A stretch of 64,000 nucleotides of DNA, from positions 62,001 through 126,000 of the forward strand of contig LADR01000008.1 of NCBI GenBank assembly GCA_000961655.1. Reading direction: 5' to 3'. This document shows positions 29,204-56,211 of the stretch, piece after piece. The notes beneath the pieces are model-generated. The model was not told where the DNA came from. It saw nothing but the letters and a program-made list of their open reading frames with translations, and searched no databases. The position numbers were made by a program, and so were the translations under genes. Source of the DNA: Desulfatitalea sp. BRH_c12. GTDB taxonomy: Bacteria; Desulfobacterota; Desulfobacteria; Desulfobacterales; Desulfosarcinaceae. How positions within the stretch are numbered: the first letter of the stretch is position 1; each line of letters opens with the position of its first letter.

Positions 29204-29279
29204 AGCGCCATGTTCACTCGAATGCAATGGGATTGGTTTGTTTGTCCGAAACCGTACCGTCAAAGACTAAGGATGTTAA

Positions 29280-31232: not shown

Positions 31233-31259
31233 GAATAATAGTCTGAAAGGATGAAGACA

Positions 31260-32747: not shown

Positions 32748-32995
32748 TCGATGATCGGCCCAAAATAAACGCGCGGTATCACACTGCCGGATCCATTTGG
32801 ATTAAGGCGAATTACTGATCCCTCCCTCTTCGCTGAAGCGGGTTCTCATTCACCGCGCCGCCAGACCACTGCCTATTAATTGATTGGTTTTAATTTCGTC
32901 TGCACTTTGGAGACGAATGCAGGAGCCGACCGCGAACGCGTTTGCCAAGCGGTCCATCTCATTACCCGCTACCCATTTCATAGGAGGAAAGAGTT

Positions 32996-33487: not shown

Positions 33488-33512
33488 ACGTTACATCGCG
33501 CCCTTGAACTTT

Positions 33513-33541
33513 CCGGCAGAGAGAATTTTTCTCTCTGCCGG
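33513..33541 (+). terminator. Strong hairpin between hcp and tssE
   Basis: CCGGCAGAGAGAA (33513-33525) pairs perfectly over 13 bp with TTCTCTCTGCCGG (33529-33541) around a TTT loop, 25 bases behind the hcp stop. No T-tract follows, so it may be a partial terminator or an mRNA-stabilising structure that keeps Hcp in excess over the baseplate genes. Confidence 0.7.
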
Positions 33542-33574
33542 ATTCGAGGGTAAAAAATCCGGGGGAGGGCGGCA

Positions 33575-34060: not shown

Positions 34061-34107
34061 TTCGGCTATCGGTGGATTGTTGCCGCCATTACGATGAGAC
34101 TGATCCC

Positions 34108-35913
34108 ATGGATGACCCTTTGTTGGAATATTATGAGCGAGAGTTGACCTTTATTCGTGAGGCGGGGGCCCAATTCGCCGAAAAGTACCCCAAAATCGCC
34201 GGACGTTTGCAACTGCAGACCGATCGGTGTGAGGACCCGCATACGGAGCGGTTGCTCGAAGGATTCGCTTTTTTGACCGGGCGTATACAGAAAAAGATCG
34301 ATGATGCCTTCCCAGAATTGACCGAATCCCTGCTTCAGGTGATTTACCCGCACTACACGCGACCGCTGCCGTCGATGACCACCGTCAAATTCGCTCCGCG
34401 CCTTCTCAATGTGCCGCCCGCCGGACATGTGATTGCAAAGGGTGCGCGTCTGTTCACACCGCCTGTCCAGGATAGCAGAATACTCTTTACGACCACTCAG
34501 GCGGTGCGTCTGTTGCCTGTGGAGGTCGCCGGCGCTGAATTCATCTTGCCTTACAATCCCGGTATCGGTGCGGTCGCGGGATTGCGAATTGAACTGAATA
34601 TGGCGCCCAAGCTGACGCTTGACCGGATTGCGTGGCCGCACAGCTTGCGTTTATTTCTCAATGGTCACCAACAGCATATTTTCAAGCTGTACGAACTGAT
34701 CCTGAATAACACCGTCCAAGTGCGGATCGTTTCCTATTCACAGCAAAAGGGAACCCGGCGCCAAGAAGGGACGCTTTCCCTTACCCCCGATCACATTGTT
34801 CCGGTTGGGTTTGGTCCGGACGAGGCGTTGCTGCCATGGCCGCAACAATCCTTCGACGGTTACCGGTTGCTGTATGAATACTTCGCCTTCCCCGAAAAAT
34901 ACCTCTACTTCGATATCGCGGGGATGGATCAAGTGCGCGCCATGGCCGGCGACAGCCTCGAAATTATCATATACCTGAACCAAAAAGGCGTCGGATCTCT
35001 GCTGATCGACAACGACACTTTTTGCCTTTATGCCTCACCGGCCGTGAACCTTTTTCAACAGATCGCATTGCCCGTGCGGATCGAACACCAGCGGACACAA
35101 TACCCCATCTATCACGACGCGAACACCAAGAGCACCACCGAAGTGTTCAGCATTGACGAGGTGACCGGGGTTGCCGACAAAGGCGATAGTGAAATCGTCT
35201 ATCACCCTTTTTACTCGGTGGGGCATTATGGTCAAAAAGAAGATCAGGAGGCCTATTGGCATATCCAGCGCTCGCCTTCGCCGCGCAAGGGGGACCAGGG
35301 CATGGATGTCTCCCTGTCGTTCACCGATGCCGGTATGGCCGCTGCCCAGCCGCAATGTGCCACGTTGACTGTGCACACCACCTGTACCAATCGCGACTTG
35401 CCGGCGCGGCTGACACCCGGCGGTTTTGCCAGGGACTTTTTTCTTGAACAAGAGTGCCCGATTGAGGGCATCGGTTGCCTGATGAAGCCCACGCCCACAG
35501 TGCGACCCAAGCCGGGCAGCCGGATGCAATGGCGTCTCATTTCGCACCTGTCGCTTAACTATCTCTCTTTGCTGACGGAAAACGGACAGGGCCTCAAGGA
35601 ACTGCTCAAACTCTACGATATCCATGATTCTGCCATATCGCAGCAACAGATCGACGGCATTGCGTCCATCGCGTACTGCTATGAGACGATGCGCATTGGG
35701 CGTTCTTTCTGCCGGGGCGTGGAAGTGACCATTCAGTTCGATGAAGATAATTACGTCGGCTCCAGTGTCTATCTTTTCGCATCGGTTCTGGAGCACTTTC
35801 TGGCCCAGTATGTCTCAATCAATTCATTCACGCGTCTGATCGTAAAGAGTCTGCAGCGTACCGGCGACATCAAGGCTTGGCCGCCGCGGAATGGAAACCG
35901 GATTCTGATTTAA
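34108..35913 (+). CDS. tssF: TssF, T6SS baseplate wedge protein
   Basis: This 601-residue protein starts at the ATG at 34108, giving the diagnostic first segment MDDPLLEYYERELTFIREAG; a start 36 bases earlier only adds unconserved residues. It forms the baseplate wedge with TssG and TssE. Further signatures are FPELTESLLQVIYPHYTRPLP split over about residues 71-91, and the late GRSFCRGVEVTIQFDE. Its stop precedes the chosen tssG start by 20 bases. Confidence 0.94.
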   Translation: MDDPLLEYYERELTFIREAGAQFAEKYPKIAGRLQLQTDRCEDPHTERLLEGFAFLTGRIQKKIDDAFPELTESLLQVIYPHYTRPLPSMTTVKFAPRLLNVPPAGHVIAKGARLFTPPVQDSRILFTTTQAVRLLPVEVAGAEFILPYNPGIGAVAGLRIELNMAPKLTLDRIAWPHSLRLFLNGHQQHIFKLYELILNNTVQVRIVSYSQQKGTRRQEGTLSLTPDHIVPVGFGPDEALLPWPQQSFDGYRLLYEYFAFPEKYLYFDIAGMDQVRAMAGDSLEIIIYLNQKGVGSLLIDNDTFCLYASPAVNLFQQIALPVRIEHQRTQYPIYHDANTKSTTEVFSIDEVTGVADKGDSEIVYHPFYSVGHYGQKEDQEAYWHIQRSPSPRKGDQGMDVSLSFTDAGMAAAQPQCATLTVHTTCTNRDLPARLTPGGFARDFFLEQECPIEGIGCLMKPTPTVRPKPGSRMQWRLISHLSLNYLSLLTENGQGLKELLKLYDIHDSAISQQQIDGIASIAYCYETMRIGRSFCRGVEVTIQFDEDNYVGSSVYLFASVLEHFLAQYVSINSFTRLIVKSLQRTGDIKAWPPRNGNRILI

Positions 35914-35933
35914 CGCCTGATAAGGTCGCATGC

Positions 35934-36953
35934 ATGCAAGAACCCAATGAGGTCCAACAGCGGTTGTTCGAAAGCGCTTACCGCTTTAATTTTTTCAGGG
36001 CGGTACGCTTGATGGAGCTGTCTGCCGGTGGCAAAGCGCCAGGCATGGGCCTAAGTCCAGCGGATGACCCCGTTCATTTCAGGGTCAAGCCGGGTTTTTC
36101 GTTTGCGGCCAGTGACATCCAGCACATTAGCACCAACGGGCCGGATGCCCCGCCGCAAATGACCATCAACTTCATGGGGCTCATCGGACCCATGGGCGTG
36201 CTGCCTCACTGGTACAACAGCCATGCGCAGAACAGCAACTACAAGAAAGATCATGTCTTTACCGATTTTCTGGATCTTTTTCATCATCGCTTGGTCTCTT
36301 TGTTTTACCTGGCTTGGAAAAAAAACCGGCTGCCGGAAAACTACCGGTCTGATGGCCGCGATCCTTTTTCTATGATTTTTGGAAGTCTGGCGGGGGCAAC
36401 CGAGCGTGAAGCCGCGGTAGATCCCGCGTTTTTCAGCGCCGTCCGAAGGCGCTTGAGCTATTTTTGCGGTTTGGTTGCGCGCACGGTTCCGACCGTTGCG
36501 GCGATCGAAACTATCGTGGCCCACGCGACCGGCGCACCGGTTCGCATCGAGCAGTTTGTCGAACGCCTGATCCCCATTCACGCCAATGACCGCACGCGCC
36601 TGGGTAGCAAAAACAGCACTTTGCAAAAAGATGCCCTTTGCGGGCGAAGCATTCGCGATACCAGTTCCTTTTTCAGAGTCAACATCGGGCCCATGTCCTG
36701 GAAGCACTACATGGCTTTTGCGCCGCACAGCCGCAACTTGGAGCTGATCGAGAAGCTGATCGCTTACCTGGCTGGCATCGAGTACGAATTCGACGTCTGC
36801 CTGATCATCCTTGGCAAGGAAATCCCGGCAATAAGCCTGGGATCGAAGAGGCAACCTCCCATCCTGGGCCGTACGGTGATGCTGCGTAGCCCACTGATAC
36901 CTTATGAAGGCAATGTGGTCGTGAAAGCAACAAACAGCGCTCGGCCGCATTGA
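35934..36953 (+). CDS. tssG: TssG, T6SS baseplate wedge protein
   Basis: This 339-residue protein starts from the ATG at 35934; an in-frame TTG at 35877 overlapping tssF is possible. The N-terminal FFRAVRLMEL and VHFRVKPGFSFAASDI, then the FMGLIGPMGVLPHWY stretch, are typical of TssG. The tail has the RLGSKNSTL, then GRSIRDTSSFFRVNIGPM pattern. It is the second wedge subunit and sits between tssF and tssH, as in many T6SS operons. Confidence 0.92.
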   Translation: MQEPNEVQQRLFESAYRFNFFRAVRLMELSAGGKAPGMGLSPADDPVHFRVKPGFSFAASDIQHISTNGPDAPPQMTINFMGLIGPMGVLPHWYNSHAQNSNYKKDHVFTDFLDLFHHRLVSLFYLAWKKNRLPENYRSDGRDPFSMIFGSLAGATEREAAVDPAFFSAVRRRLSYFCGLVARTVPTVAAIETIVAHATGAPVRIEQFVERLIPIHANDRTRLGSKNSTLQKDALCGRSIRDTSSFFRVNIGPMSWKHYMAFAPHSRNLELIEKLIAYLAGIEYEFDVCLIILGKEIPAISLGSKRQPPILGRTVMLRSPLIPYEGNVVVKATNSARPH

Positions 36954-36966
36954 ACGAAAGGACCTC

Positions 36967-39711
36967 ATGACGCACCTGGATCTAAAATCGCTGGTCTCGA
37001 AACTTAACCCGGCCTGTCGCAAGGCGCTGGAAGCAGCCGCCGGCATGTGTCACTCCAACACCCACTACGAGGTGGAGATCGAGCATTTTTTCCTCAAACT
37101 GCTTGACGACGATGCCCTTGATATTCACTGCCTTTTGAAACGCTTCGAGATCGACCAGGGACGCGTTCAGGCTCAATTGACCGCTGCGATCGCCCGTTTC
37201 AAAACCGGCAACGGGCGCACGCCGGCTTTGTCTCCACGGATTCCCAAATTGCTGGCCGAGGCCTGGCTGTGCGCTTCGGTGGATTTTGGCGCGGGGGCGC
37301 TCTGTTCCGGGCACCTGATGCTGACCGCGCTGCGCGTGCCCTACTTTGCCGAGACGTTGCGCTCCAATGTGCCGGAACTAATGGCCATTTCGCTGGAAAC
37401 GCTGCGTAATCATTTCGGGGACATCACCGCCGGCTCGGCCGAGCAGCGTTTCGCCGCGTCCTTATCGCAAACCACGGCCATCTCAGGATCCATGGACGGC
37501 GGAGCACTGGATCAGTACACCATCAATTTGACCGACCGCGCGCGCGCCGGGCAGATCGATCCGGTGATCGGCCGGGACGCCGAGATCCGCCAGATGGCCG
37601 ATATCCTGATTCGGCGACGGCAGAACAACCCCATTCTCACTGGCGAGGCGGGTGTCGGCAAAACTGTGGTGGTGGAAGGGTTTGCATTGCGGATCGTGCA
37701 AGGCGATGTGCCCGGGCCGCTTAAGTGCGTTGAAATCCGCACCTTGGACATTGGATTGTTGCAGGCCGGCGCCGGCGTCAAAGGCGAATTCGAAAACCGG
37801 CTCAAGGAGGTCATCAAAGAGGTTAAAGCCTCGCCGGTGCCCATTATCCTATTTATAGACGAGGCCCACACCATGATCGGCGCTGGTGGCGCCCAAGGCG
37901 CAGGCGATGCCGCCAACCTGCTCAAGCCGGCGCTGGCCAAAGGCGAACTGCGCACCATTGCCGCCACCACCTGGGCGGAATATAAAAAGTACTTTGAAAA
38001 AGATGCGGCCCTGTCGCGCCGCTTTCAGGTCATCAAAATCGAAGAGCCCGATGAAACCCAGGCCCTGCTGATGATGCGTGCCATCTGTCCGCTCTTCGAG
38101 CAGCACCACCAGGTCAGCGTCACAGACGAGGCCCTGGTGGATGCCGTGCGCCTCTCCAACCGCTACATTTCAGGGCGCAAACTGCCCGATAAATCGGTCA
38201 GCGTCCTCGACACCGCCTGCGCTCGCATCGCCATGGAGGCCGACGCGGTGGCCCAACCGATCGAAGCCGCGCAACGTCGCCTCGAACACATTGCCCGCGA
38301 AATTGAACGACTGAGCGATGAACAGCGGATCGGCCGCGATCACGGTGAACGCATTGCCGTGCTTGAGACGGAAGGCCGCCAGACCGCAGCCGAGTTGGCC
38401 ACGCTGAACGCGCGCTGGTTGAAAGAAAAGGAGATAGTGATGCGGATCCGGCAGGCGCGTGCCGACATCCGGCAGGCGCATGACGACGATTTACCGAATC
38501 AGGATATGATCGCGGCCTGCCGGCTCACGCTGCGGGATCTGGAGGCCGAGTTATGTAAGATCCAGCAAAACGAGCCGCTGATCAAGGTAGAGGTCGACCC
38601 CCAAACGATCAGCGAAGTGGTTTCCGGCTGGACCGGCATCCCCACCGGCCGCATGCTAACCGATGAAATTCCCATGGTCCTGAACCTTGAAAACGAGTTG
38701 GGCAAACGCATCATCGGCCAAGATCACGCCCTGGGTGCCATCGCCCGCGTGGTCCGCACGGCCCATGCCGGCATTGAAGACCCCGCCAAGCCCACCGGCG
38801 TCTTCATGCTGGTCGGCCCTTCCGGCGTGGGCAAGACCGAGACAGCCCTGGCCCTGGCCGAACTGCTGTATGGCGGCGAACAGAACATGGTGACCATCAA
38901 CATGTCGGAGTACCAGGAATCCCACACCGTATCCGGACTCAAGGGCTCGCCGCCCGGCTACGTGGGCTACGGCGAAGGCGGCGTGCTCACCGAAGCCGTG
39001 CGCCGGCGGCCCTACAGCGTCGTGCTGCTCGACGAAATCGAAAAAGCCCACCCGGACGTCACCGAACTGTTCTACCAGGTGTTCGACAAGGGCGTGCTCG
39101 AAGATGGCGAAGGCCGCCGGATCGATTTTAAAAACACACTGATCATTTTGACCTCCAATATCGGCACCGACCTGATCATGCACCATTGCCACAACAAGCA
39201 GGATGCCCCGGACATGGAAACCTTGAAAACCATGCTCACTCCGGCCTTGCAGAAGCGCTTCAAACCGGCCTTTCTGGGGCGGCTGCAGGTGGTGCCCTAC
39301 TATCCGATCCACGACGGCATCATGCGCCTGATCATCCGGATCAAACTCGACCGCATCCAAGCGCGCATGCAGCGCAACCGCAAAATGGCCTTCAGCTACG
39401 ACGAAGCGCTGGTCGAGAGCATTGCCGCGCGCTGCACCGAAGTGGACTCGGGCGCGCGCAATGTGGATCACATCCTGAGCGACGCGCTGCTGCCCGAACT
39501 GTCGCGCAAAATCCTGGAAAAAATGGCCAAGGATATCCCCATCGAAACCATTGCCGTGCACATGGGCGCGCAAGGGTTTGAATTCGAATTTAACCGCCGC
39601 CGGTGCCAGGCCGAACCGGCTGCCGCGAAGATCATGACGGCCAAAAAGAAGAAGAAATCACCGAAACCAGCAAAACAAGAAAAGCCGAAAATCGATGAGC
39701 CGCTACAGTAA
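36967..39711 (+). CDS. tssH: TssH (ClpV), AAA+ ATPase recycling the T6SS sheath
   Basis: This 914-residue Clp/Hsp100-class ATPase disassembles contracted sheaths. It has an N-terminal helical domain (CHSNTHYEVEIEHFFLKLLDD), a first AAA+ domain with Walker A GEAGVGKT (about residue 226) and Walker B IILFIDEAH, a coiled middle domain (about 415-540) and a second AAA+ domain with Walker A GPSGVGKT (about residue 617) and VVLLDEIEKAH. The N-terminal domain and lack of ClpB disaggregase features fit ClpV. The C-terminus is Lys-rich (AKKKKKSPKPAK). It overlaps the next gene by 17 bases, tying the effector to the core operon. Confidence 0.94.
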   Translation: MTHLDLKSLVSKLNPACRKALEAAAGMCHSNTHYEVEIEHFFLKLLDDDALDIHCLLKRFEIDQGRVQAQLTAAIARFKTGNGRTPALSPRIPKLLAEAWLCASVDFGAGALCSGHLMLTALRVPYFAETLRSNVPELMAISLETLRNHFGDITAGSAEQRFAASLSQTTAISGSMDGGALDQYTINLTDRARAGQIDPVIGRDAEIRQMADILIRRRQNNPILTGEAGVGKTVVVEGFALRIVQGDVPGPLKCVEIRTLDIGLLQAGAGVKGEFENRLKEVIKEVKASPVPIILFIDEAHTMIGAGGAQGAGDAANLLKPALAKGELRTIAATTWAEYKKYFEKDAALSRRFQVIKIEEPDETQALLMMRAICPLFEQHHQVSVTDEALVDAVRLSNRYISGRKLPDKSVSVLDTACARIAMEADAVAQPIEAAQRRLEHIAREIERLSDEQRIGRDHGERIAVLETEGRQTAAELATLNARWLKEKEIVMRIRQARADIRQAHDDDLPNQDMIAACRLTLRDLEAELCKIQQNEPLIKVEVDPQTISEVVSGWTGIPTGRMLTDEIPMVLNLENELGKRIIGQDHALGAIARVVRTAHAGIEDPAKPTGVFMLVGPSGVGKTETALALAELLYGGEQNMVTINMSEYQESHTVSGLKGSPPGYVGYGEGGVLTEAVRRRPYSVVLLDEIEKAHPDVTELFYQVFDKGVLEDGEGRRIDFKNTLIILTSNIGTDLIMHHCHNKQDAPDMETLKTMLTPALQKRFKPAFLGRLQVVPYYPIHDGIMRLIIRIKLDRIQARMQRNRKMAFSYDEALVESIAARCTEVDSGARNVDHILSDALLPELSRKILEKMAKDIPIETIAVHMGAQGFEFEFNRRRCQAEPAAAKIMTAKKKKKSPKPAKQEKPKIDEPLQ

Positions 39712-45142: not shown

Positions 45143-46978
45143 ATGGCCCTTTTGCAACAGCACCGGATGATAAGAATTGCCACCCCACTGGGTGAAGACG
45201 CTTTTATCGTATTATCGTTAAGCGGCGTTGAAGGAATTTCGCGGGACGTTAACTTCGCCCTTACGCTGGCCTCGGAAAAAAACGACATCACCTTTGACCA
45301 ACTTGCCGGCAAAAATGTGACCGTGGGCATTGCTTCCTCGAATGGAAAAGAACGTTTTTTCAATGGGATCATCGTGGAATTCATGCCCATGGAGACCTCC
45401 GTCAAAGGCGGCATCAGCAAATACCACGCCGTGATGGTTCCGGCCTTGTGGGTTTTGAACAAGTGCGTGGATTGCAGAATTTTTCAAGACACCTCTGTGC
45501 CGGATATTATCAAACAGGTGTTGGCCGCCTTGCCCGGCAAGGGCGTTTCGCAAACGATCGACTACCGCATGGAACTTACCGGCACTTACGCGCCCAAGGC
45601 GTATTGCGTGCAGTACAATGAAACCGATCTGAATTTCATCAATCGCTTGTGCGAGTACGAAGGCATCTTCTACTTTTTCGAACATGAAAACAAAAAACAC
45701 ACCCTGGTTTTTGCCGATAAAGCCGATAAGCATAAGCCGTTTATGGCAGGGAGTACACCGAAAGTGATTTTTCAAAGTCCACGGGGCGGCCATCTGGACA
45801 AGGAGGTCATCACGGCCCTTCACTCCATCAACCGCCTGATGACGGGCAAATACATGGCCAGGGATTACAATTTTACCATACCCAACAATGACATGACCGT
45901 GAAGTACACCACGGTAGCCGCAAAACCCACCTGCGAAGGCGAAATTTATGAGTATCCAGGTGGTTATGCCGTTACCGAAGGCGAAGGCAATACGCTGGCC
46001 CACATCCGCATGCAGGCAAACGATGCGCAGACGATTATGCTGCACGGTCAAAGCACTATCCGCGGCTTTGTGCCGGGCTGCAAATTTATACTTTCGGACC
46101 ACCCCCTGGAAGATATGAATGGCAAGGAATACGTTTTAACCAAGGTGCGCCATGAGGCCAAACAGGATATCAGCACCGGCGCACCCGACGGTGATGTGTA
46201 TTATAACCTTTTTTCGTGCATTCCTTATGACTCGCAATTTCGTCCCCAATGCCGTCACCGCCGGCCGACGATCCCCGGCAGCCAGACCGCCATCGTGACC
46301 GGTCCCAAGGACGAGGAGATTCACACCGACGAACATGGGCGCGTCAAAGTAAAATTTCACTGGGACCGGCGCGGTGATCACAATAACGACGGCAATATGT
46401 CCTGCTGGATACGGGTTTCCCAGAACTGGGCCGGGGCGCGATGGGGCGCCATTCACATTCCGCGGGTGGGACAGGAAGTAATTGTCAACTTCCTGGACGG
46501 CGATCCGGATCGGCCCATCATCACCGGCCGGGTCTATCACGGCTTGAACCTGCCGCCCTACGATCTTCCCGCCGAAAAGACCAAAAGCACGATCAAATCC
46601 AACTCCACCAAAGGAGGCGATGGCAACGCCAACGAAATCCGCTTCGAGGATCTCAAGGGCTCGGAAGAGTTCTTCACCCACGCGGCCAAGGACCGTAACG
46701 AAGTCGTGGAAAACGACATGCGCACCGAAGTCAAACGCAACCAGTTCATAGTCGTGGAAAAAAACCGCAGCGTTACCGTTGCCAGCGGCAACGAAACCGT
46801 GGCTGTCCAAAACGGCACGCGCGATGTGTCCGTCACGTCCAACGAAACGCATGCCAACGCAGCCAACTATAACCACAAGGTGAGCGGCAATTACACCTTG
46901 AAAGTAAACGGCAACATTAAAATCGATGCCTCGGGCCTGGTTACCATATCCGGATCTAAAATCATCTTGAATGGCTGA
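45143..46978 (+). CDS. vgrG: VgrG, T6SS spike protein (TssI)
   Basis: This 611-residue trimeric spike tip of the Hcp tube has a gp27-like part (residues 1 to about 380, with YCVQYNETDLNFINRLCEYEG and IFYFFEH), then the gp5 OB-fold (IVTGPKDEEIHTDEHGRVKVKFHWDR; SQNWAGARWGAIHIPRVGQEV) and a needle of repeated beta strands ending in VTISGSKIILNG. There is no C-terminal effector extension, so cargo must bind separately or via PAAR. It is the only complete vgrG here; two broken 5' copies precede it. Confidence 0.96.
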   Translation: MALLQQHRMIRIATPLGEDAFIVLSLSGVEGISRDVNFALTLASEKNDITFDQLAGKNVTVGIASSNGKERFFNGIIVEFMPMETSVKGGISKYHAVMVPALWVLNKCVDCRIFQDTSVPDIIKQVLAALPGKGVSQTIDYRMELTGTYAPKAYCVQYNETDLNFINRLCEYEGIFYFFEHENKKHTLVFADKADKHKPFMAGSTPKVIFQSPRGGHLDKEVITALHSINRLMTGKYMARDYNFTIPNNDMTVKYTTVAAKPTCEGEIYEYPGGYAVTEGEGNTLAHIRMQANDAQTIMLHGQSTIRGFVPGCKFILSDHPLEDMNGKEYVLTKVRHEAKQDISTGAPDGDVYYNLFSCIPYDSQFRPQCRHRRPTIPGSQTAIVTGPKDEEIHTDEHGRVKVKFHWDRRGDHNNDGNMSCWIRVSQNWAGARWGAIHIPRVGQEVIVNFLDGDPDRPIITGRVYHGLNLPPYDLPAEKTKSTIKSNSTKGGDGNANEIRFEDLKGSEEFFTHAAKDRNEVVENDMRTEVKRNQFIVVEKNRSVTVASGNETVAVQNGTRDVSVTSNETHANAANYNHKVSGNYTLKVNGNIKIDASGLVTISGSKIILNG

Positions 46979-47088
46979 GCCCGGCACACTGGGATCAAGC
47001 GAGGGGCTCGATCCCTCCTTGCGTTGCTTTGATCGGCAATGAGAATCAACGCATTTTCGACGACACCATCAACCTTAAAGGACAGCGT

Positions 47089-47901
47089 ATGCCGGCCCCC
47101 TTACCCACAGCCCTTAGCAACACCGCCAAACGGATCTTCTCCGGACAAGGGATTAAACTTCCCGTGAACTGGCACGACATGGGACCGAACTATCCGCAAG
47201 CGTTCACGCCATCCGAGTTGACCACCCAGAGCAATGCGCCCACCAACTTGTTTCAGGAACCCACGCTGAACCGTTACCATACCAGCTCGGCACGCACGGT
47301 CGGCCGCGCCATGGAAAAGTATATCGATGGCGTTTGCGCCGCCATCGCCGATGGCATCGATAAGTGGATGCGCATGGCCTCGGTGGTCGCGGTCACCATC
47401 AACGGTCCGATCGGCACCTTGCTGCCCGGTGGCGTAACCGGCCCGTTGCTGACGCCCTTGATTTTTGCAAAAGCGCCGCGCAAAACCGAACTTGAAACAG
47501 AATACAGCAACGCCATCGCCGTGGCGGTCGGCAACGGCTGGTTGCATTGGCAACAAGGCTTATGCGGTGTGCTCACCTATCCTTTGTTTGCCGCCGCTCC
47601 CATGCCCATGGCGCCGCCGACGCCCAATGTGCCCTCGGCGCTGATTACGTGCGGATCCTCGGGAGAAGGCCAGCTGTCCCCGGGGGCGCTTAAAAATGCC
47701 ATGGCCGCGGCCATGAAAGACGACGGCCAGCATGCCGCCACGCTCTTTGATGCTGTGGCCCAATCGTTTTACGCCCATTTTCAAACCTTCAAAACCAGTA
47801 CGCTGCTGACCAACATCATCGGCACCGGTCCGGTGACCCTGCCGCCCAGCGGGCCGGTGACCGGGGGAAGCGTTATCCCGACACCGGGGAATTTCATTTA
47901 A
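47089..47901 (+). CDS. Unknown protein of the VgrG/PAAR locus
   Basis: This 270-residue protein starts at the ATG at 47089 after AAAGGACAG; an upstream in-frame start at 47029 is less likely. I recognise no family. It contains a hydrophobic Gly/Pro-rich stretch (VVAVTINGPIGTLLPGGVTG) and a Pro-rich section (APMPMAPPTPNVPSA). It is followed without a gap by the DUF2169 gene (TAA directly followed by ATG). Placement between vgrG and the PAAR/DUF2169/Rhs genes suggests a spike- or cargo-loading role. Confidence 0.6.
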   Translation: MPAPLPTALSNTAKRIFSGQGIKLPVNWHDMGPNYPQAFTPSELTTQSNAPTNLFQEPTLNRYHTSSARTVGRAMEKYIDGVCAAIADGIDKWMRMASVVAVTINGPIGTLLPGGVTGPLLTPLIFAKAPRKTELETEYSNAIAVAVGNGWLHWQQGLCGVLTYPLFAAAPMPMAPPTPNVPSALITCGSSGEGQLSPGALKNAMAAAMKDDGQHAATLFDAVAQSFYAHFQTFKTSTLLTNIIGTGPVTLPPSGPVTGGSVIPTPGNFI

Positions 47902-48921
47902 ATGAAACTCGATCACCCAGCCCTTATTGATTCCGCGGCCTTGCCTTTGATTGGCCCGAACGGCGATAACCTGCTTGTGGTTATTGCAAAAGGCACGTTT
48001 ACGTTTCATTCCGGCCGCAGCGAACCGGCCGAAGAAGTCATTCCGATCGCCTACGGCGATCTCTTCGATGATGATATCGGCGCCATCCGGTATGAATCCG
48101 ATATCCTGCCGCCTAAGCCGCGCACCGATATCATTTTATGCGCAAGCGCCTATGCGCCGGGCGGCAAACCGACGCAATCGGTAGCGGTGGCCCTTAAAGT
48201 CGGCAAAGTAGAAAAACGGATCATGGTTTTTGGCGACCGCTTCTGGAATTATGCCGGTGTCTTAAGCCGCACCTATGCCATCACCGCAACCAAACCGTTT
48301 ACGCAGCGGCCGATCGTTTACGAAGACGCCTTCGGGGGCATCGATGCGATCACCGGTCAATACTGCGCCGAAAACCTGGTTGGCAAAGGTTTTTATACCG
48401 TCACATCCAAGCATCATCTGGCCGGCAAGCCCCTGCCTTGCATCGAGGACCCGCGCCATTTGATCCGCCATATTAACGATCGGCCACCACCGGTTGGCTT
48501 TGGCGTATACAACCGCGCCTGGCAACCGCGCGCTGCCTATGCGGGCACCTATGATCAAAGCTGGCGCAAGGGCCGTTGCCCCCTGCCTCCCAAGGATTTC
48601 GATGCCCGCTTTTACAACAGCGCCCATCCGGATTTACAAGCCGACGGCTACCTTCAGGGCAACGAAGCAGTAGTCTTAAGCAATCTGACACCCGAGGGCA
48701 GCACCGTTTTTCATTTACCCAACGTGACGCTTTTCTGCCAAATCGCCCACAGAACCGATCACAAGCACGAAGAAAACAAAATCCGCAGGATGAACCTGGA
48801 TACCTTGTTCATCGAACCGGATAAAAAGCACTTCTGCATCGTCTGGCGAACCGCAGTCAGTTTAATCGGATTCGCCACAACCGATATCGTCCAAGTAACC
48901 ATTGGCTTAAAACAAGGATAA
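47902..48921 (+). CDS. DUF2169 protein, T6SS-associated
   Basis: This 339-residue cytosolic protein has the DUF2169 signatures PPKPRTDIILCASAYAPGG and MVFGDRFWNYAGV, plus FGGIDAITGQYCAENLVGKG-type loops. DUF2169 genes commonly accompany PAAR and effector genes in T6SS loci and are thought to be adaptors or chaperones for loading. It sits directly behind the unknown gene and 118 bases before the PAAR gene. Confidence 0.82.
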   Translation: MKLDHPALIDSAALPLIGPNGDNLLVVIAKGTFTFHSGRSEPAEEVIPIAYGDLFDDDIGAIRYESDILPPKPRTDIILCASAYAPGGKPTQSVAVALKVGKVEKRIMVFGDRFWNYAGVLSRTYAITATKPFTQRPIVYEDAFGGIDAITGQYCAENLVGKGFYTVTSKHHLAGKPLPCIEDPRHLIRHINDRPPPVGFGVYNRAWQPRAAYAGTYDQSWRKGRCPLPPKDFDARFYNSAHPDLQADGYLQGNEAVVLSNLTPEGSTVFHLPNVTLFCQIAHRTDHKHEENKIRRMNLDTLFIEPDKKHFCIVWRTAVSLIGFATTDIVQVTIGLKQG

Positions 48922-49039: not shown

Positions 49040-49423
49040 ATGCCCGGACAAGCAAGGATAGGAGATAAGGCGCGCGGCATTGACGCACACCGCTGCAATG
49101 CCTGCCCGCACATCGTATCAGGCCCCGCCACGCAAGGCTCGGCTGATGTGATCGTCAACGGCAAACCCGCAGTACGCAAAGGCGATGGTGGCGTGCATTC
49201 AGCCTGCTGCGGCTCAAACCGATGGACCGCCCAGGGAAGCAGCAACACGGTCATCATCAACGGCAAACCGGCCTTCCGCCTGCGCGACAGCACCAATCAC
49301 TGCGGCGGCAAAGGCGTGCTGGTCGAAGCCAGTGGCAATGTGATCGTAGGCAATTCGCAAGCCAGCGGATTTAAGAATGCCGCCAAAACCCATGCGCCGT
49401 TCGTATGCAATTGTTACAAATAA
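49040..49423 (+). CDS. PAAR-domain spike tip protein (DUF4150 type)
   Basis: This 127-residue protein should sharpen the VgrG trimer and carry cargo. It has the repeated PAAR-like pattern GSADVIVNGKPAVRKGDGG, SSNTVIINGKPAFRLRDS and GSGNVIVG-like (here ASGNVIVG), with His and Cys at metal-binding positions (AHRCNACPH, HSACCG, NHCGGKG). The ribosome site GGAAAAGGAGC lies upstream. It is 13 bases from the start of the DUF4123-Rhs gene, which implies joint loading. Confidence 0.9.
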   Translation: MPGQARIGDKARGIDAHRCNACPHIVSGPATQGSADVIVNGKPAVRKGDGGVHSACCGSNRWTAQGSSNTVIINGKPAFRLRDSTNHCGGKGVLVEASGNVIVGNSQASGFKNAAKTHAPFVCNCYK

Positions 49424-49436: not shown

Positions 49437-52400
49437 ATGACCCAGAACACAGTAAAGAAACTGCTCGGCAAGGATTTAGCGGCAGCACACTATGCGCTGA
49501 TAGATTGTGCGGTCACCGCCGCGGTCACCGATGGGGACGATATCTTCTTGCGCTTGAGCGACCCCGGTATCCGCAAATTCAGCCTGTTTACCGGTGAGAA
49601 CACCATTGTCGCCGAGCAAACCGCACCCTACCTGGTGCCCTTGGATGATCAGCCCGATATCCAGGACTGGCTCATGGACAACGGCTGGGGCCGATCCTGG
49701 TCCATTTTCTTTACCAGCGAGGCCGACAATAAAACGTTGCTGGCCCATCTGCGGCGTTTTTTCCAGGTGCGGGCCGAAAACGGCCGCGATCTGTTCTTCC
49801 GGTTTTTCGACCCTGTTATTCTGCGCGATTTTCTGCCCATGCTGACGGCCGACGAATCGGCCTGCTTCTTTGGACCGGTTACGCGCTATGTGCTCGAAGA
49901 TGAAAACGGCCGGCCACTCTCCTTTGATCGACCGGCCGGCCCACCGGCAGCGGACATGGATCCCTCCCGGCTGATAACCGCCAAACGGCATCTGTTTGCA
50001 GCTGCCTGGAACCTGCGACTGCTCCAGGCGCACAAAAAAGCCTATGAAGCCATGGGCGTTGATGTGGCCATCGATCCCGAGCAAAACGCCCTGACCATCA
50101 AAGAAAAAGACGGGACCCAGGCCGCCTTGCAAAAGACCCCCGCAGGCGTTGCCGTGACCACCGGCGAAGGCAGGCTTTTTCAATACGAACTGAGCACTTG
50201 CAAAAACCCCACCGCCATCATCGACCCGGCCGGCAACCGCATCGATTACGACCTGCAGGAAAGAGAAAATGTCGTCAGCACGCATAGGCAAAGCTTGCTT
50301 AGCGCCATCCGCATGGAAAACAATCGCAAGACGTGGGTCTTTGATTACGACGAGGACAATCATCTTGCGCGCATCGACTACCCCGACGGCACAAGCGCTC
50401 TGCCCGTTCATGACGCCTATGGCAACCTGTGCGCCCATACGGACCGCAACGGCCATGTCACGCGCATGGAACGCGACGCGCACGAGCGACTGACCCGCAT
50501 GATCGATACCAACGGGCAGGCCACCACCTTTGACTACGAAGATCGCAAGGCCCCATCGCGCATCCGCTTTGCCGACGGCGCCGCCTTTGAATTTGCCTAT
50601 ACCGAGCAAGGCAGCCTGCAAGCCTTTCTGGCCAACAATGAAAAAGTGGCCGATTACACCGTGGACCGGGAAAACGGCAGTTGGTCCGCCCGCTACACCG
50701 ACGGCACCTGGGCACACTTTACAGTTCAAAACGACAAAGTCGTTCGCGCCCAAAACCCGGCCGGCACCCTTGTGCTGGACTATGACGAAAACGGCCGCCT
50801 GTGCTCGGAAACCTTTAACAACCAAACCGTTGCCTACCAGCGCAATGAAAGCGGCCTGTTAACCGGTATCATTGCCCCGAGCGGGCAAACCATTGTCTTT
50901 GAGCGCGACGGCGAGCAACGCATCAGCCAAATTACCGACTGGAACGATCGCACCATCGGCATCGGCTACAGCCTCAACGGTGCCCTTGAACGCATCGATT
51001 ACCCCAACGGCCTTAAACTTCTCCAGCACACCGCGCCCAGCGGGCTGCCCGAACGCATGACCCTGACCAGCCCCCTGGCCGAAGACCCCATCTTCGACCG
51101 CCGTTTCGAACGCGACCTGCTCGAGCGCGTCACGCAACTGCACGACGGCCAGCACACCATCCACTACGCCTACGATAACGAAGGCCGGCTGCTTGGCGTG
51201 CACAGCGATCAAGCCGATCGCTGCGAATCCTTTTCCATCGATGCCAAAGCCAACCGCCTGTCTGACGGCATCACCGATTACACCATCAACGCCGCCGACC
51301 GCATCGCCCAGCCCGGCTTTGACCACGACGCCCTGGGCAACCTGACCCAAAGCATCGGACCCGGCGGCAGCGCCGCCTACGACTGGCAATCGGCCAACCG
51401 GCTCACCCGCGCAACCCTTAAAGATACCCGGGCACACTACGCCTACGATGCCTTTGGCCGACGGGTGGAAAAACAGGTCAACGGCACCCGCACCCGCTAC
51501 ACCTGGGCCGGCGCCCAACTGCTTTGTGAAATCATCCTGAGTGCCGACGGCGACCGAACCATCGATTATCTCTTCTTTCCCGGCACACCAGCACTGCTGG
51601 CTCTGCGCGACAACCAGCAAAGCTACTACGCCGCCTTCGGCCACCGCTACGAGACCCTGTGCCTGACCGACCTGTCCGGCGCCACCGCCTGGCAAGCCGA
51701 CTACGACGCCTTCGGCAACGCCCGCATCATGATCGGCGCCGATCTGCACCAACCCATGCGCCTTGCCGGCCACTACCTGGATGCCGAGACCGGCCTGCAT
51801 TACAGCAGCGCACGTTACTACGATCCGCACTTGGGCCGCTATCTGTCGCTCGACCCTTTGTTTTTGGAAGGCGGCGGCGACAACTTTTACGCCTATTGCA
51901 ACGGCGATCCCATCAACGGCATTGATCCCACTGGAGAATTTATCTTTTGCGCTATATTGATCGGCGCAGCCATCGGTGCGGCCATCGGCGGCGGAATCGA
52001 ATATTATCGACAGAAGCAAACCGGTAAAGCGGTGGACGGCTTCAAGGTGGCCAAAGCCGCCCTGATCGGTGGGGCTATCGGCGTCATCGGCGGCGGGGTA
52101 GGGGCCGTGGTCGAAGCCGGCGTCGCTGCGGGAACAGCAGGGACCATCCTGGGCAAATCGGCCTTGGGCACCATGGCCGCCACGGGCTTTTTATCCGGCG
52201 CGGCCGGATCAGTCGCCGAACAGTGCACCGGCGCGGCCATGGTCGACAATGCGCTACCGCCACTAGAAATCGCCACTCAGGCGGCCACCGATGGTGTGAT
52301 AGGCGCGGTCATCGGGCTTACGGGTTTTGGGGTTCTGGGGGTATTGGCACCGCGTGTCAGAAAAGGGTATCGGGCAGCTAAAGGCACGCTAACTGAACGA

Positions 52401-55400
52401 AAAGTCCAGCTGGCCCGAAAGGCAACCGATAATAGAGCCAAAACCACCATAACTCGCGCCGGAGATAAAAGTGTCCAGGTTACCGACGCCACGGCCATCT
52501 CGGCGGCCGGAGATCCGGTCAACTCCGTGACAGGGGAAGTGATCCTGACCCAAACCGATTTTACCCTGCCCGGGCGCATCCCGCTATCGTGGACACGCCA
52601 TTATGGCTCGCGGGTCAGCTATAGCGGCTATTTGGGCACCGGCTGGCAAACCCCGGCCGATGCACGCCTTGAGCTCGAAGATGACATGGTCCTTTTCTAC
52701 GACGGCAGCCCCGGCGGCGCGGTTTTTGAGTCGCTGCCCACCGATACACCAATCATGGAAGTGGCCAATGGCGCCATGCTGTCAGCCGACCCGGCTGGCT
52801 ATCAGGTCAAACTAAAGTCCGGCGTCAGCTTTCATTTTGGACGCGATTTTGAAAAACAGATTTCTTCGGTCACCCGCATCAGCGACATCAACGGCAATAA
52901 TCTTACCTTCATCCGCCGGGATGGCATTTTAAGTGCCATTAACGACAGCAGTGGCCGCACCATTGAGATCGTCTGCGAAAACGGCCGCATCGTGCAAATG
53001 ACCTGCAACAAGCAATTGCTTGTAAGCTACCAGTACCAGGACGGCGCGCTTACCGCAGTTATCGATGCATTCGGCCATGGCAAGCGCTACGCCTATCAAG
53101 ACGGGCGCATGATCCGCCACAGCAGCCGCAACCATCTGTCCTTTCACTACCAATACGATCACAAGGGCCGCTGTATTCACGGCTTTGGGGACCACGGCCT
53201 ATATGACTACCATTTTGAGTACCTGCCCTATGACCGCTGCACCCGGGTAACGGACTCGTTGGATCATCTTTGGCACTACCATTACAACACCGGCCGACTG
53301 CCCACAAAAGTGGTTGATCCCACCGGCGCGGCCACCATCTACAGCTACGATGACGTCGGACGGGTCATCGCGGTGACCGATCCGCTTGAGCGTACCACGC
53401 GCTATGACTACGATGCAGCCGGCAACGTCATTGAAATCACCCAACCCGACGACAGCCGCATGGTATTTGTCTACGATGACAATCACCGGCCCATCCAGAT
53501 CATGGATCCCAATGATCATATCAGCGAATACCGTTTCGATGATCACGGCCGGCTGATCGAAAAAATAAGCCCGCTGGGCCACGGCACCCGCTACACCTAT
53601 CATCGCACGGGCGAACTTGCCGCCATCAGCGATCCCCAGGATCGCACCACCAGCTTTGAATGGGACGACAGCGGGCTGATCGCCACCGTGATCAGCCCAT
53701 CGGGCAACCGCACCCATTACCAGCACGATCTTTTCGGCAATATCACCGCCATCATCGATCCGACCGGCCAAACTACCCGTTACAGCTATGATGAAAAATC
53801 ACGCTTGAACGCCGCCGTATCGCTCACCGGACGGCGCCAAAGCTTTGAATGGGACCCGGAAGACAACCTGCTGCGCTACACCGCCGCCGACGGTACCCAA
53901 ACCCGCTTTGAATACACCGGCATCAACGAAATGGCACGGCGCATCAACGCCGACGGCACCAGCGTTTCTTACAGCTACGACACCGAAGAGCGTTTGACCT
54001 GCGTCACCAACGAAAAGGGTCAAACCCATCGGTTCACCTACGATCCAGCCAGCCGCGTGACCACTCAGACCGATTACCACGGCCAAAGCCACCACTACCA
54101 CTATGACCCGGCCGGCCAATTGATCCAAAGCATCGACCCGCTGCAACAATCGATCGCCTTTACCTATGATCCGGCCGGGCGCATGGTCACCAAGTTGTTT
54201 GAAAACGAAGAACGAGAAACCTTTTCCTGGGACCCGGCCGGCCACCTGATCGCCTTTGAATCCCCGGACATCCGCGTCGAGCGCACCTTTGACCCCGACG
54301 GGCGAATGATTGCCGAACAAAGCGGCGGCTTCGAAGTAAAATACGACTACGATGCCAGCGGGCTACGCACCGGCCGCACCACCAATCACGGCAACCGCAT
54401 CGTCTATGACTACGACGCCGACGGCCAAGTTGCGGCTATTACCATCAACGACCAACCGTCCGTATGCTTTGACCGCAACCGGTTGGGCCAAATTACTGTC
54501 GAAAAGCTCAGCGAGCGCCTGACTCGCACCTACGGTTACGACACTGACGGCCGGCTCATCCATCAACGCATATCATCTAACTTGAATCAGATCGACCGCA
54601 GCTACCAATACGATCCTGTCGGTAACCTGATCGCCAAACAAGACAGTGGCAAGGGCAATTGGCGCTTTTCTTATGATCCCATGGGCCGCATCATCGGTTT
54701 CATCGATCCCATGGAACAGGTCAGAAATTACGCTTATGATCCGGCCGGTGACCTGCTAAGCCATCTTCCTGACACCCAATCCGGACTGCGCACGGCCACC
54801 CACGAAGGCACGACCTACTGTTTTGATGCCGCCGGCAACCTTGTCAAACGCGCCGGGGCCAAAAAAAATGCACCCCAGATCCGCCTGGAATGGGACGAAC
54901 AAAACCGCCTGCGCACCGTCCGCACCGCCGACGACAACACCATCCGCATGGCCTGCGACGCCCTGGGACGGCGCGTTAGAAAGAGCGTCAATGGCGTGCG
55001 CACGACCTTTGCCTGGGACGGCGACGTCCTGCTGTCCGAGCAGTTCGATGACCAACCGGCCCGCGAATACGTCTATTACCCGGGTACCTTCGAACCCCTG
55101 GCCGTCATTGACGGCAACGGCCAAGTCTATTACTATCATAACGATCCAAACGGGCTACCCCAGGAGCTGACCCGTCCCAACGGCGAAATCGTATGGTCGG
55201 CCACCTACGACGCCCTGGGCCGGGTCGAACAGGTCCTGGCGGATGAGATCGCCCAACCCCTGCGCATGCAGGGTCAGTACTGGGACGAAGAAATCGGGCT
55301 GTGCTACAACCGCCACCGGTACTTTGACCCGCACATTTGCTCTTTCATAAGTCAAGATCCACTCGGGCTTGCTGCCGGGGAGAATGTTTATGCTTATGCC

Positions 55401-55874
55401 CCGAATATTTGGGGGTGGGTGGATCCGTTGGGGTTGTGTCCTAAAGCAAACGAGTCGTCTTTTACTCAGCGTCAAAATCAAATGCTACAGGATGATGTTG
55501 GCTACAATGTTTCTCCAGACAGTTTTTATAGAGGCTACCCTGCGATTGGTAGAAACGGCACTTTCGTTACAGATGCCCAAGCCTTCAACACTCTTGGACC
55601 GATAAATGGCAGCCAACAGTACTCTGTCGGGCTTTTTTCAAACGCGTCAAAAGATCAGATCAGCTATTACAAAGCTTGGAAAATTGAAAAAGAACTTGGT
55701 TTAGAAAGAAGAAGTTTATGGAAAGGCTTCAGGCTTAAAGAAATATATGGTATTGGCGGAATGTCTCCGAGGTCGCCTTTGGAAGGAAATCAATATTTTC
55801 TTGGTCCTGGTAAGGGACTTCCTAATGGTGCACCCGAGATGGTTATAGACTCTGTACCAACTACATGGCCTTAA
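49437..55874 (+). CDS. DUF4123-Rhs-Rhs polymorphic toxin with two Rhs cores
   Basis: The protein has 2145 residues from the ATG at 49437. Residues about 15-160 are a DUF4123 adaptor-like domain (HYALIDCAV; GWGRSWSIFFTS; FFRFFDPVILRDFLP). A first YD-repeat Rhs core follows, ending at about 834 in the closing motif (GLHYSSARYYDPHLGRYLS, then GIDPTGE). A glycine-rich hydrophobic linker (about 835-995) leads to a second start (DPVNSVTGEVILTQTDFTLP, about 1026) and a second core to about 2000, closing with ICSFISQDPLGL and VDPLGLCP. The 145-residue tip is AT-rich, with FYRGYPAIGRNGTFVTD and PEMVIDSV, weakly recalling ADP-ribosyltransferases. Most Rhs toxins have one core. Delivery is presumably by VgrG/PAAR, with the DUF4123 adaptor built in. 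Confidence 0.93.
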   Translation: MTQNTVKKLLGKDLAAAHYALIDCAVTAAVTDGDDIFLRLSDPGIRKFSLFTGENTIVAEQTAPYLVPLDDQPDIQDWLMDNGWGRSWSIFFTSEADNKTLLAHLRRFFQVRAENGRDLFFRFFDPVILRDFLPMLTADESACFFGPVTRYVLEDENGRPLSFDRPAGPPAADMDPSRLITAKRHLFAAAWNLRLLQAHKKAYEAMGVDVAIDPEQNALTIKEKDGTQAALQKTPAGVAVTTGEGRLFQYELSTCKNPTAIIDPAGNRIDYDLQERENVVSTHRQSLLSAIRMENNRKTWVFDYDEDNHLARIDYPDGTSALPVHDAYGNLCAHTDRNGHVTRMERDAHERLTRMIDTNGQATTFDYEDRKAPSRIRFADGAAFEFAYTEQGSLQAFLANNEKVADYTVDRENGSWSARYTDGTWAHFTVQNDKVVRAQNPAGTLVLDYDENGRLCSETFNNQTVAYQRNESGLLTGIIAPSGQTIVFERDGEQRISQITDWNDRTIGIGYSLNGALERIDYPNGLKLLQHTAPSGLPERMTLTSPLAEDPIFDRRFERDLLERVTQLHDGQHTIHYAYDNEGRLLGVHSDQADRCESFSIDAKANRLSDGITDYTINAADRIAQPGFDHDALGNLTQSIGPGGSAAYDWQSANRLTRATLKDTRAHYAYDAFGRRVEKQVNGTRTRYTWAGAQLLCEIILSADGDRTIDYLFFPGTPALLALRDNQQSYYAAFGHRYETLCLTDLSGATAWQADYDAFGNARIMIGADLHQPMRLAGHYLDAETGLHYSSARYYDPHLGRYLSLDPLFLEGGGDNFYAYCNGDPINGIDPTGEFIFCAILIGAAIGAAIGGGIEYYRQKQTGKAVDGFKVAKAALIGGAIGVIGGGVGAVVEAGVAAGTAGTILGKSALGTMAATGFLSGAAGSVAEQCTGAAMVDNALPPLEIATQAATDGVIGAVIGLTGFGVLGVLAPRVRKGYRAAKGTLTERKVQLARKATDNRAKTTITRAGDKSVQVTDATAISAAGDPVNSVTGEVILTQTDFTLPGRIPLSWTRHYGSRVSYSGYLGTGWQTPADARLELEDDMVLFYDGSPGGAVFESLPTDTPIMEVANGAMLSADPAGYQVKLKSGVSFHFGRDFEKQISSVTRISDINGNNLTFIRRDGILSAINDSSGRTIEIVCENGRIVQMTCNKQLLVSYQYQDGALTAVIDAFGHGKRYAYQDGRMIRHSSRNHLSFHYQYDHKGRCIHGFGDHGLYDYHFEYLPYDRCTRVTDSLDHLWHYHYNTGRLPTKVVDPTGAATIYSYDDVGRVIAVTDPLERTTRYDYDAAGNVIEITQPDDSRMVFVYDDNHRPIQIMDPNDHISEYRFDDHGRLIEKISPLGHGTRYTYHRTGELAAISDPQDRTTSFEWDDSGLIATVISPSGNRTHYQHDLFGNITAIIDPTGQTTRYSYDEKSRLNAAVSLTGRRQSFEWDPEDNLLRYTAADGTQTRFEYTGINEMARRINADGTSVSYSYDTEERLTCVTNEKGQTHRFTYDPASRVTTQTDYHGQSHHYHYDPAGQLIQSIDPLQQSIAFTYDPAGRMVTKLFENEERETFSWDPAGHLIAFESPDIRVERTFDPDGRMIAEQSGGFEVKYDYDASGLRTGRTTNHGNRIVYDYDADGQVAAITINDQPSVCFDRNRLGQITVEKLSERLTRTYGYDTDGRLIHQRISSNLNQIDRSYQYDPVGNLIAKQDSGKGNWRFSYDPMGRIIGFIDPMEQVRNYAYDPAGDLLSHLPDTQSGLRTATHEGTTYCFDAAGNLVKRAGAKKNAPQIRLEWDEQNRLRTVRTADDNTIRMACDALGRRVRKSVNGVRTTFAWDGDVLLSEQFDDQPAREYVYYPGTFEPLAVIDGNGQVYYYHNDPNGLPQELTRPNGEIVWSATYDALGRVEQVLADEIAQPLRMQGQYWDEEIGLCYNRHRYFDPHICSFISQDPLGLAAGENVYAYAPNIWGWVDPLGLCPKANESSFTQRQNQMLQDDVGYNVSPDSFYRGYPAIGRNGTFVTDAQAFNTLGPINGSQQYSVGLFSNASKDQISYYKAWKIEKELGLERRSLWKGFRLKEIYGIGGMSPRSPLEGNQYFLGPGKGLPNGAPEMVIDSVPTTWP

Positions 55875-55881
55875 TTTGACA

Positions 55882-56211
55882 ATGAAACCTATATCTTACG
55901 TTTCAAACATACAAGATTCTATTATTAGGTTGCGACTATTTGATAATGATAAGGCCAACAGGATTAAGGCATTAGGTGGCAGAAAACCACTATTCTCTAT
56001 ATTTTGGACTATTCCATATCATAACAAAAATGATTTGGCCCAAATTATAAAATCGTTAATTGAATTAGGAGTTTGTTTTGTTGGATCTACTCATGGTTGG
56101 CCCCCATCAGAAATATTAGCAAAGCTTAAAGACGATGGAATTTTAGATATAGGTTGGAAAGAAATTGTTTGGGTTAAAAAAGAAAAGTTTATAGTGAGAG
56201 ATCGGGAGTGA
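55882..56211 (+). CDS. Candidate immunity protein of the Rhs tip
   Basis: This 109-residue soluble protein begins 7 bases after the Rhs stop, at the ATG at 55882. It is AT-rich like the Rhs tip, and no family is recognised. A WTIPYHNKNDLAQIIKSLIELG segment predicts an alpha/beta fold. Position and shared composition are the basis for the immunity call. Confidence 0.6.
   Translation: MKPISYVSNIQDSIIRLRLFDNDKANRIKALGGRKPLFSIFWTIPYHNKNDLAQIIKSLIELGVCFVGSTHGWPPSEILAKLKDDGILDIGWKEIVWVKKEKFIVRDRE

What the first reader, a model, noticed from the sequence alone, without database searches (positions are those of the whole stretch)
49437..55874. One polypeptide with a DUF4123 domain and two successive Rhs cores
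The first core ends in a normal closing motif (DPTGE), then a glycine-rich hydrophobic stretch of about 160 residues takes the place of a toxin and a second complete Rhs start and core follow, ending in an AT-rich tip. The two cores are clearly different in sequence, so this is not a simple duplication. A tandem double shell with a built-in adaptor would be a new Rhs layout: the first shell might hold the linker or be a relic of gene fusion with loss of the first toxin.
Basis: seen in the sequence. Interest (0 to 1): 0.8.

Follow-up and report, generated by a model that had tools for sequence, protein, structure and literature searches.

The report
Adaptor-fused double-Rhs type VI effector
A sulfate-reducer-related bacterium makes one giant toxin-delivery protein that joins a type VI secretion adaptor, a short Rhs shell, a glycine-rich hydrophobic stretch and a second, full Rhs shell carrying an exchangeable toxin; related species keep the same layout, so it is a real, maintained variant of a known weapon and not a sequencing error.

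Summary
Window 49437-55874 (+) is one uninterrupted frame of 2145 aa: DUF4123, Rhs core 1 with its own closing (RAC) domain, a glycine-rich linker, DUF6531, Rhs core 2 with its own RAC domain, and an AT-rich tip. It lies behind a T6SS cluster in vgrG-DUF2169-PAAR order. It is not an error: two other species of the genus encode the same layout in one frame (64% and 59% identity) and a third is cut by a contig end. Identity stays high through both cores, then collapses right after the second DPLGL, so only the last tip is exchanged. Both cores and the linker are under purifying selection.

Core 1 is not a complete shell: sequence and a good AlphaFold model match only the C-terminal ~60% of a canonical shell, a TcC-sized half. 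The glycine-rich stretch is an ordinary Rhs pre-toxin segment. A single-core DUF4123-Rhs protein exists (Sphingomonas), so a second Rhs effector was probably fused in place of the first toxin.

Proposed mechanism (inferred): built-in adaptor loads it on VgrG/PAAR; the half-shell carries the glycine-zipper translocation segment; core 2 delivers the toxin. Verdict: new variant of a known kind.

The parts
49437..55874 (+). DUF4123 - Rhs core 1 - linker - DUF6531 - Rhs core 2 - tip, one 2145-aa protein
   Evidence: orthologs
49488..49859 (+). DUF4123 domain (residues 18-141), T6SS adaptor/chaperone family; the only DUF4123 found in this genome
50049..51935 (+). Rhs core 1 (residues 205-833): partial shell matching the C-terminal ~60% of canonical shells, with its own RAC end
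51852..51935 (+). core 1 closing/aspartyl-protease-like motif (residues 806-833); both Asp kept in three species, DPLF and spacing 24
51936..52466 (+). glycine-rich hydrophobic linker (residues 834-1010), 8 GxxxG motifs, three hydrophobic peaks; ordinary Rhs pre-toxin type at its start; inferred fusion joint about residues 925-1005
52509..52706 (+). DUF6531, the N-terminal plug of core 2 (residues 1025-1090)
52707..55433 (+). Rhs core 2 (residues 1091-1999), full canonical shell; with DUF6531 it aligns to RhsA 7q97 237-1294
55356..55433 (+). core 2 canonical closing motif DPLG...DPLG, Asp-Asp spacing 22
55437..55871 (+). exchangeable C-terminal tip (residues 2001-2145), no family match; putative antibacterial toxin
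55876..56211 (+). putative immunity gene, 111 aa, no family match; assigned by position only
49040..49423 (+). PAAR spike-tip protein
47902..48921 (+). DUF2169 accessory protein
47029..47901 (+). 290-aa protein without family match, between vgrG and DUF2169
45143..46978 (+). VgrG (TssI) spike protein
23462..39711 (+). T6SS core cluster: TssK, TssL/DotU, TssM, TssA, TssB, TssC, Hcp, TssF and ClpV-type ATPase identified

Best explanation
It is a T6SS-delivered polymorphic (Rhs) antibacterial effector made by fusing two effectors. The first was a DUF4123-Rhs effector whose toxin was replaced by a whole second Rhs effector (DUF6531-shell-toxin). Proposed working: (1) the fused DUF4123 domain loads the protein on the VgrG/PAAR spike encoded just upstream, doing in cis what Tap/Tec adaptors do in trans; (2) core 1, a half-length shell with a closed C-terminal end, carries or shields the glycine-zipper linker, in place of an Eag chaperone, which was not found in this genome; (3) on injection the linker inserts in the target inner membrane and helps core 2 or its cargo across; (4) core 2 self-cleaves at its canonical DPLGL site and releases the tip toxin, which the neighbouring gene neutralises in the producer. 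Shown by sequence: the single chain, its conservation, its T6SS setting, tip exchange; the half-shell fold is shown by sequence and a model. Inferred: the order of the fusion and steps 1-4. I hold the identity (fused two-core T6SS effector) at about 0.93 and the full mechanism at about 0.35.
For: Same layout in single frames in two more species of the genus, with unrelated tips and, where seen, DUF2169 and PAAR upstream; T6SS cluster in the window and on the same contig in G009. Purifying selection on DUF4123, core 1, linker and core 2. A single-core DUF4123-Rhs gene directly behind a PAAR gene in Sphingomonas hankookensis shows that the first half exists as a protein of its own. Single-core Rhs with the same glycine-rich stretch and single-core DUF6531-Rhs in the same order supply both halves. 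The only DUF4123 found in the genome is this one, and no DUF1795/DcrB (Eag) family member was found. The core 1 model (pLDDT 80, pTM 0.77) matches the C-terminal part of Tse5, RhsP and Tse15 and nearly the whole of TcC-type YenC2. Literature: the DUF4123 adaptor Tap1 binds a glycine-zipper N-terminus that permeabilises the target membrane (PMC10240207); RAC Asp dyad and release of toxin (PMC8765631).
Against: No experiment. Core 1 is only a partial shell, so it may be unable to enclose the linker; what caps its open end is unknown. The model of core 1 used core 2 rows in its alignment and so leans towards the canonical fold. The joint model of DUF4123, core 1 and linker failed (pLDDT 41), so the place of the linker is untested. 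If core 1 cleaves itself, adaptor and core 2 would be held only non-covalently. DUF4123 adaptors are described as not secreted (PMC10673891), which fits badly with one fused to the cargo.
Confidence: 0.5

Rival explanations
1. Sequencing or assembly error: two neighbouring rhs genes joined by a missed stop or frameshift.
For: The joint region is the least conserved part of the two halves (32-48% identity at 951-1050), as expected of a joint.
Against: Three assemblies of different species are open in the same frame across the joint; no start codon with a Shine-Dalgarno motif lies in the joint in any of them.
Confidence: 0.02
2. Core 1 is a non-functional relic of the fusion, carried along passively.
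For: The first toxin is missing; the core 1 closing motif is altered (DPLF, spacing 24).
Against: Core 1 identity (61-68%) equals that of core 2 (61-66%) and dN/dS is 0.26-0.52 against 0.25-0.46; both Asp and the altered motif are the same in three species.
Confidence: 0.13
3. Double-blade effector: the glycine-rich linker is itself a pore-forming first toxin held by core 1, and the tip is the second.
For: Glycine-zipper segments can permeabilise membranes (PMC10240207); Rhs shells can carry pore-forming toxins (Tse5, PMC10684867); double-toxin T6SS effectors exist (WHIX, PMC12135965); weak SseC-like match.
Against: The linker is conserved between species while the true tip is exchanged; only one putative immunity gene follows; the same kind of glycine-rich stretch stands after the closing motif in single-core Rhs proteins.
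Confidence: 0.15
4. Core 1 and core 2 together build one continuous barrel, as modelled for the two Rhs domains of Streptococcus suis WapA.
For: WapA-CT1 has two Rhs domains modelled as one column with a DUF6531 lid and one RAC bottom (PMC12704120).
Against: Here DUF6531 stands in front of core 2, not core 1, and each core has its own RAC end, so two compartments are more likely.
Confidence: 0.12

Closest known systems
DUF4123-Rhs protein of Sphingomonas hankookensis plasmid pSZ.B2R2_2 (WP_272815879.1)
   Same: DUF4123 at the N-terminus, Rhs core of the same length (28.6% identity over 822 aa), hydrophobic stretch after the RAC end, PAAR gene just upstream
   Different: One core only; the hydrophobic stretch is followed by a ~100-aa tip, not by a second Rhs; annotated but, as far as searched, not studied
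Canonical T6SS Rhs effectors RhsA (7q97), Tse5 (8cp6), RhsP (8h8b), Tse15 (8uy4)
   Same: DUF6531-type plug, shell, Asp-dyad RAC end and exchangeable tip, as in core 2
   Different: One shell; no DUF4123; RhsA-type proteins carry PAAR and an Eag-dependent TMD in the same chain
WapA-CT1 of Streptococcus suis (PMC12704120)
   Same: One polypeptide with two Rhs domains, each with a C-terminal cleavage site, and exchangeable tips
   Different: Sec-exported Gram-positive wall protein; DUF6531 before the first domain; modelled as one long barrel with one RAC end; no DUF4123
TcC subunit of Tc toxins (YenC2 4igl_D, TccC2 6l7i_G)
   Same: The core 1 model aligns over almost the whole TcC shell half (Z 30)
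   Different: TcC is completed by a separate TcB; no DUF4123 or second shell
Tap/Tec DUF4123 adaptors, e.g. Tap1 of Tde1 (PMC10240207)
   Same: DUF4123 paired with a glycine-zipper effector segment
   Different: Separate, reportedly non-secreted proteins; here fused in one chain

Membership tests
Rhs polymorphic toxin (T6SS type) | YD/RHS repeat shell ending in the RAC (TIGR03696) domain | tested here: met
   RHS_repeat in 13 stretches, TIGR03696 in two
Rhs polymorphic toxin (T6SS type) | DPxG-x18-DPxG aspartyl protease motif | tested here: met
   Core 2 canonical with spacing 22; core 1 is a variant (DPLF, spacing 24) with both Asp kept
Rhs polymorphic toxin (T6SS type) | Exchangeable C-terminal tip with immunity gene behind it | tested here: met
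   Identity collapses at residue ~2001 among orthologs; one tip is Stv, followed by a DUF7919 gene; the immunity role is by position only
Rhs polymorphic toxin (T6SS type) | Linked to vgrG/PAAR and a T6SS | tested here: met
Rhs polymorphic toxin (T6SS type) | Secretion by T6SS and killing of competitors | not testable with these tools
   Needs bench work
DUF4123 (Tap/Tec) adaptor | PF13503 domain above the gathering score | tested here: met
   80.4 bits against cut-off 25.8; orthologs 65-75 bits
DUF4123 (Tap/Tec) adaptor | Stand-alone adaptor protein, not part of the cargo | tested here: not met
   Fused here; in 7 other genomes of the phylum sample DUF4123 sits in 181-227-aa frames
prePAAR / Eag-dependent Rhs effector | N-terminal PAAR/TMD in the same chain and a DUF1795 chaperone | tested here: not met
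   PAAR is a separate gene; no PF08786 match in the genome
Full Rhs cocoon (core 1) | N-terminal plug plus the whole set of shell turns | tested here: not met
   No DUF6531 before core 1; model and sequence match only the C-terminal ~60% of canonical shells
WapA double-Rhs proteins | Sec signal, wall-binding NCWB region, DUF6531 before Rhs1 | tested here: not met
   DUF4123 at the N-terminus and DUF6531 only before core 2; feature list from PMC12704120

The most novel reading that the evidence does not exclude
A two-compartment effector in which an adaptor-tipped half-shell serves as a built-in chaperone for a membrane-translocation segment, so that one Rhs shell is used to deliver another: an Rhs effector whose cargo is a complete Rhs effector.
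Probability: 0.3. Interest if true: 0.72.

Novelty: new variant of a known kind. Interest (0 to 1): 0.5.

Why it matters
Two known T6SS effector types occur here as one chain with two RAC ends, and the adaptor that is normally separate and reported as not secreted is covalently part of the cargo. That gives a natural test of open questions: whether DUF4123 leaves before firing, whether an Rhs shell enters the target cell, how a half-shell of the TcC type is closed in T6SS effectors, and whether glycine-zipper segments replace Eag-chaperoned TMDs. The layout appears limited, in what could be searched, to one genus of Desulfobacterota; WapA of S. suis shows that two Rhs domains in one chain are not unique as such.

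Tried and rejected
AlphaFold of residues 1-1105 with four rows gave pLDDT 41 and was not used. A second job on core 1 alone, with core 2 and viral-contig Rhs rows, gave a usable model. Large open frames in other genomes (G458 2074 aa, G597 1679 aa) looked like possible two-core proteins but hold a single core. Plasmid hits covering about 80% of the query (Rahnella, Caballeronia, Burkholderia glumae) are single-core Rhs genes or such genes plus neighbouring pieces. Burkholderia H41 is a single RHS gene next to a DUF1795 gene. Viral contigs hold no relative of the N-terminal half. The weak SseC match is far below its cut-off and is treated as a sign of hydrophobic composition only. Papers: no T6SS two-core Rhs or DUF4123-Rhs fusion found; subscription papers and preprints are not held.
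Full report
WHAT IS THERE. The plus strand holds one open frame from 49377 to 55874; the start at 49437 gives 2145 aa and matches the starts of the orthologs. The other five frames over the same stretch are full of stops. Pfam and NCBIfam give, in order, DUF4123 (residues 18-141), RHS repeats, a first Rhs_assc_core end, DUF6531 (1025-1090), further RHS repeats and a second Rhs_assc_core end. GC drops from about 0.6 to 0.4 over the last 145 residues.

SETTING. The window contains a T6SS cluster (TssK, TssL, TssM, TssA, TssB, TssC, Hcp, TssF, ClpV-type ATPase). Further on come vgrG (45143-46978), a 290-aa protein without family, DUF2169, PAAR, the two-core gene and a 111-aa putative immunity gene. 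The genome is a Desulfobacterota member: relatives of the gene lie in MAGs named Desulfatitalea sp., Desulfobacterales bacterium and Deltaproteobacteria bacterium.

NOT AN ERROR. Two further species of the same genus encode the same layout in one frame of 2128 and 2139 aa (64% and 59% identity), and a third is cut by a contig end after residue 697. Upstream DUF2169 and PAAR are kept in G009 and G010. In windows of 50 residues, identity runs at 32-84% through DUF4123, core 1, linker and core 2, and falls to 10-18% over residues 2001-2100. The tips are unrelated: one is an Stv domain followed by a DUF7919 gene, the window's has no match. dN/dS (Nei-Gojobori, saturated in places, so rough) is 0.25-0.53 in core 1, linker and core 2. 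No start codon with a Shine-Dalgarno motif lies in the joint in any of the three.

HOW FAR IT SPREADS. A profile of the N-terminal half found no second example in 395 genomes of the phylum. A profile of the joint found only the same three in 389 genomes of the class and in 30 of the family. In 72,556 plasmids no place covers 80% of the joint. The scan of 84,980 species genomes returned only the three congeners, but it used short patterns from close relatives and would miss distant cases. In the genus, the gene is seen in 4 of 11 genomes, one of them cut short; all ten tested congeners have a T6SS.

WHERE THE TWO HALVES COME FROM. Core 1 is 29% identical to the C-terminal ~60% of core 2 over 618 aligned positions, so it is not a recent duplicate. 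A single-core DUF4123-Rhs protein of 1092 aa lies directly behind a PAAR gene on a Sphingomonas hankookensis plasmid. It has a core of the same length, a hydrophobic stretch and a short tip. The glycine-rich stretch also follows the closing motif of single Rhs cores in the same class: about a dozen joint-profile matches run from the closing motif into it. Single-core DUF6531-Rhs relatives of core 2 occur in the same order. Outside the three orthologs no listed match bridges the stretch between about residues 925 and 1005, which is also the least conserved between orthologs. I place the fusion there: a second Rhs effector took the place of the first one's toxin. This is inference from the pattern of matches.

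FOLD. Core 2 with its DUF6531 plug aligns over its whole length to RhsA. Core 1 (residues 205-845) was modelled with 16 rows at pLDDT 80, pTM 0.77. It superposes on the C-terminal ~60% of Tse5 (500-1168, Z 37, rmsd 2.5 over 534), RhsP (558-1164, Z 37, rmsd 2.9 over 535) and Tse15 (748-1395, Z 38, rmsd 2.9 over 545), and on nearly the whole TcC half of Tc toxins (7-690 of YenC2, Z 30, rmsd 4.6 over 497). So core 1 is a partial shell with a closed C-terminal end and no N-terminal plug of the DUF6531 kind. What closes its other end (DUF4123, a partner, nothing) is unknown. The model leans on core 2 rows and is not independent proof of a canonical fold.

CLEAVAGE MOTIFS. Core 2 has the canonical pair D1974/D1996 with spacing 22, as D1324/D1346 of RhsA (PMC8765631). 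Core 1 keeps two Asp (D806/D830) but with DPLF and spacing 24, the same in all three species. Viral-contig Rhs proteins show DPVF, DPVK and DPLN in this place too, so activity cannot be judged from the motif.

MECHANISM. DUF4123 proteins load cargo on VgrG (PMC5471719) and are described as not secreted (PMC10673891). In Tde1, the partner of a DUF4123 adaptor, a glycine-zipper N-terminus is needed to enter the target cell (PMC10240207). Here both elements are in one chain, this is the only DUF4123 found in the genome, and no DUF1795/DcrB family member was found. The linker has 8 GxxxG motifs in 170 residues, ten times the density of the rest, and there are three hydrophobic peaks. I therefore propose loading by the fused adaptor, carriage of the glycine-zipper segment by the half-shell, membrane entry by that segment, and toxin release from core 2. 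None of these steps is shown.

COMPARISON. The nearest published two-Rhs protein is WapA-CT1 of S. suis, Sec-exported and modelled as a single barrel with one RAC end (PMC12704120). In the papers searched I found no T6SS effector with two RAC-ended cores and no study of a DUF4123-Rhs fusion. I rate it a new variant of a known kind.

Noticed in passing
window 56367-58354: Two IS200-type (Y1) transposase copies, 98.6% identical over 503 bp (56535-57037 and 57854-58354), flank an 805-bp fragment of an Rhs core 2 (57050-57852) that is only 83.6% identical to the gene next to it, so it came from another allele.
   Followed up: partly
window 41079-45417: Imperfect direct repeats of about 1.1-1.5 kb (85-97% identical): fragments of the vgrG start alternate with small genes (172-aa frames at 42979-43497 and 44566-45084), as if vgrG-linked toxin/immunity cassettes had been duplicated.
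   Followed up: partly
L029 14998-15384 and L009 705-1091 (-): The tip of the G009 ortholog is an Stv 'putative adhesin' domain followed by a DUF7919 gene, which suggests Stv as a toxin domain and DUF7919 as its immunity partner.
   Followed up: no
G000:C23:9011-12208 (L003, L005): The same genome has a 4142-aa open YD-repeat frame near a contig end; several relatives have frames of 4000-7000 aa with an Rhs end.
   Followed up: no
window 39695-41674: 660-aa protein between the ClpV-type gene and the repeated region with no Pfam family above cut-off, where a T6SS accessory protein would be expected.
   Followed up: no
L067 7845-11123 (Sphingomonas hankookensis plasmid): Single-core DUF4123-Rhs protein with half-length core and a tip without family match, followed by a suppressor-of-fused domain gene; looks like an unstudied effector class.
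   Followed up: partly
L118 3-5312 (-) (G458): Single-core DUF6531-Rhs protein with a long Ser/Thr/Pro-rich N-terminus and a C-terminal stretch of several hundred residues after the closing motif that continues beyond the fetched piece.
   Followed up: no
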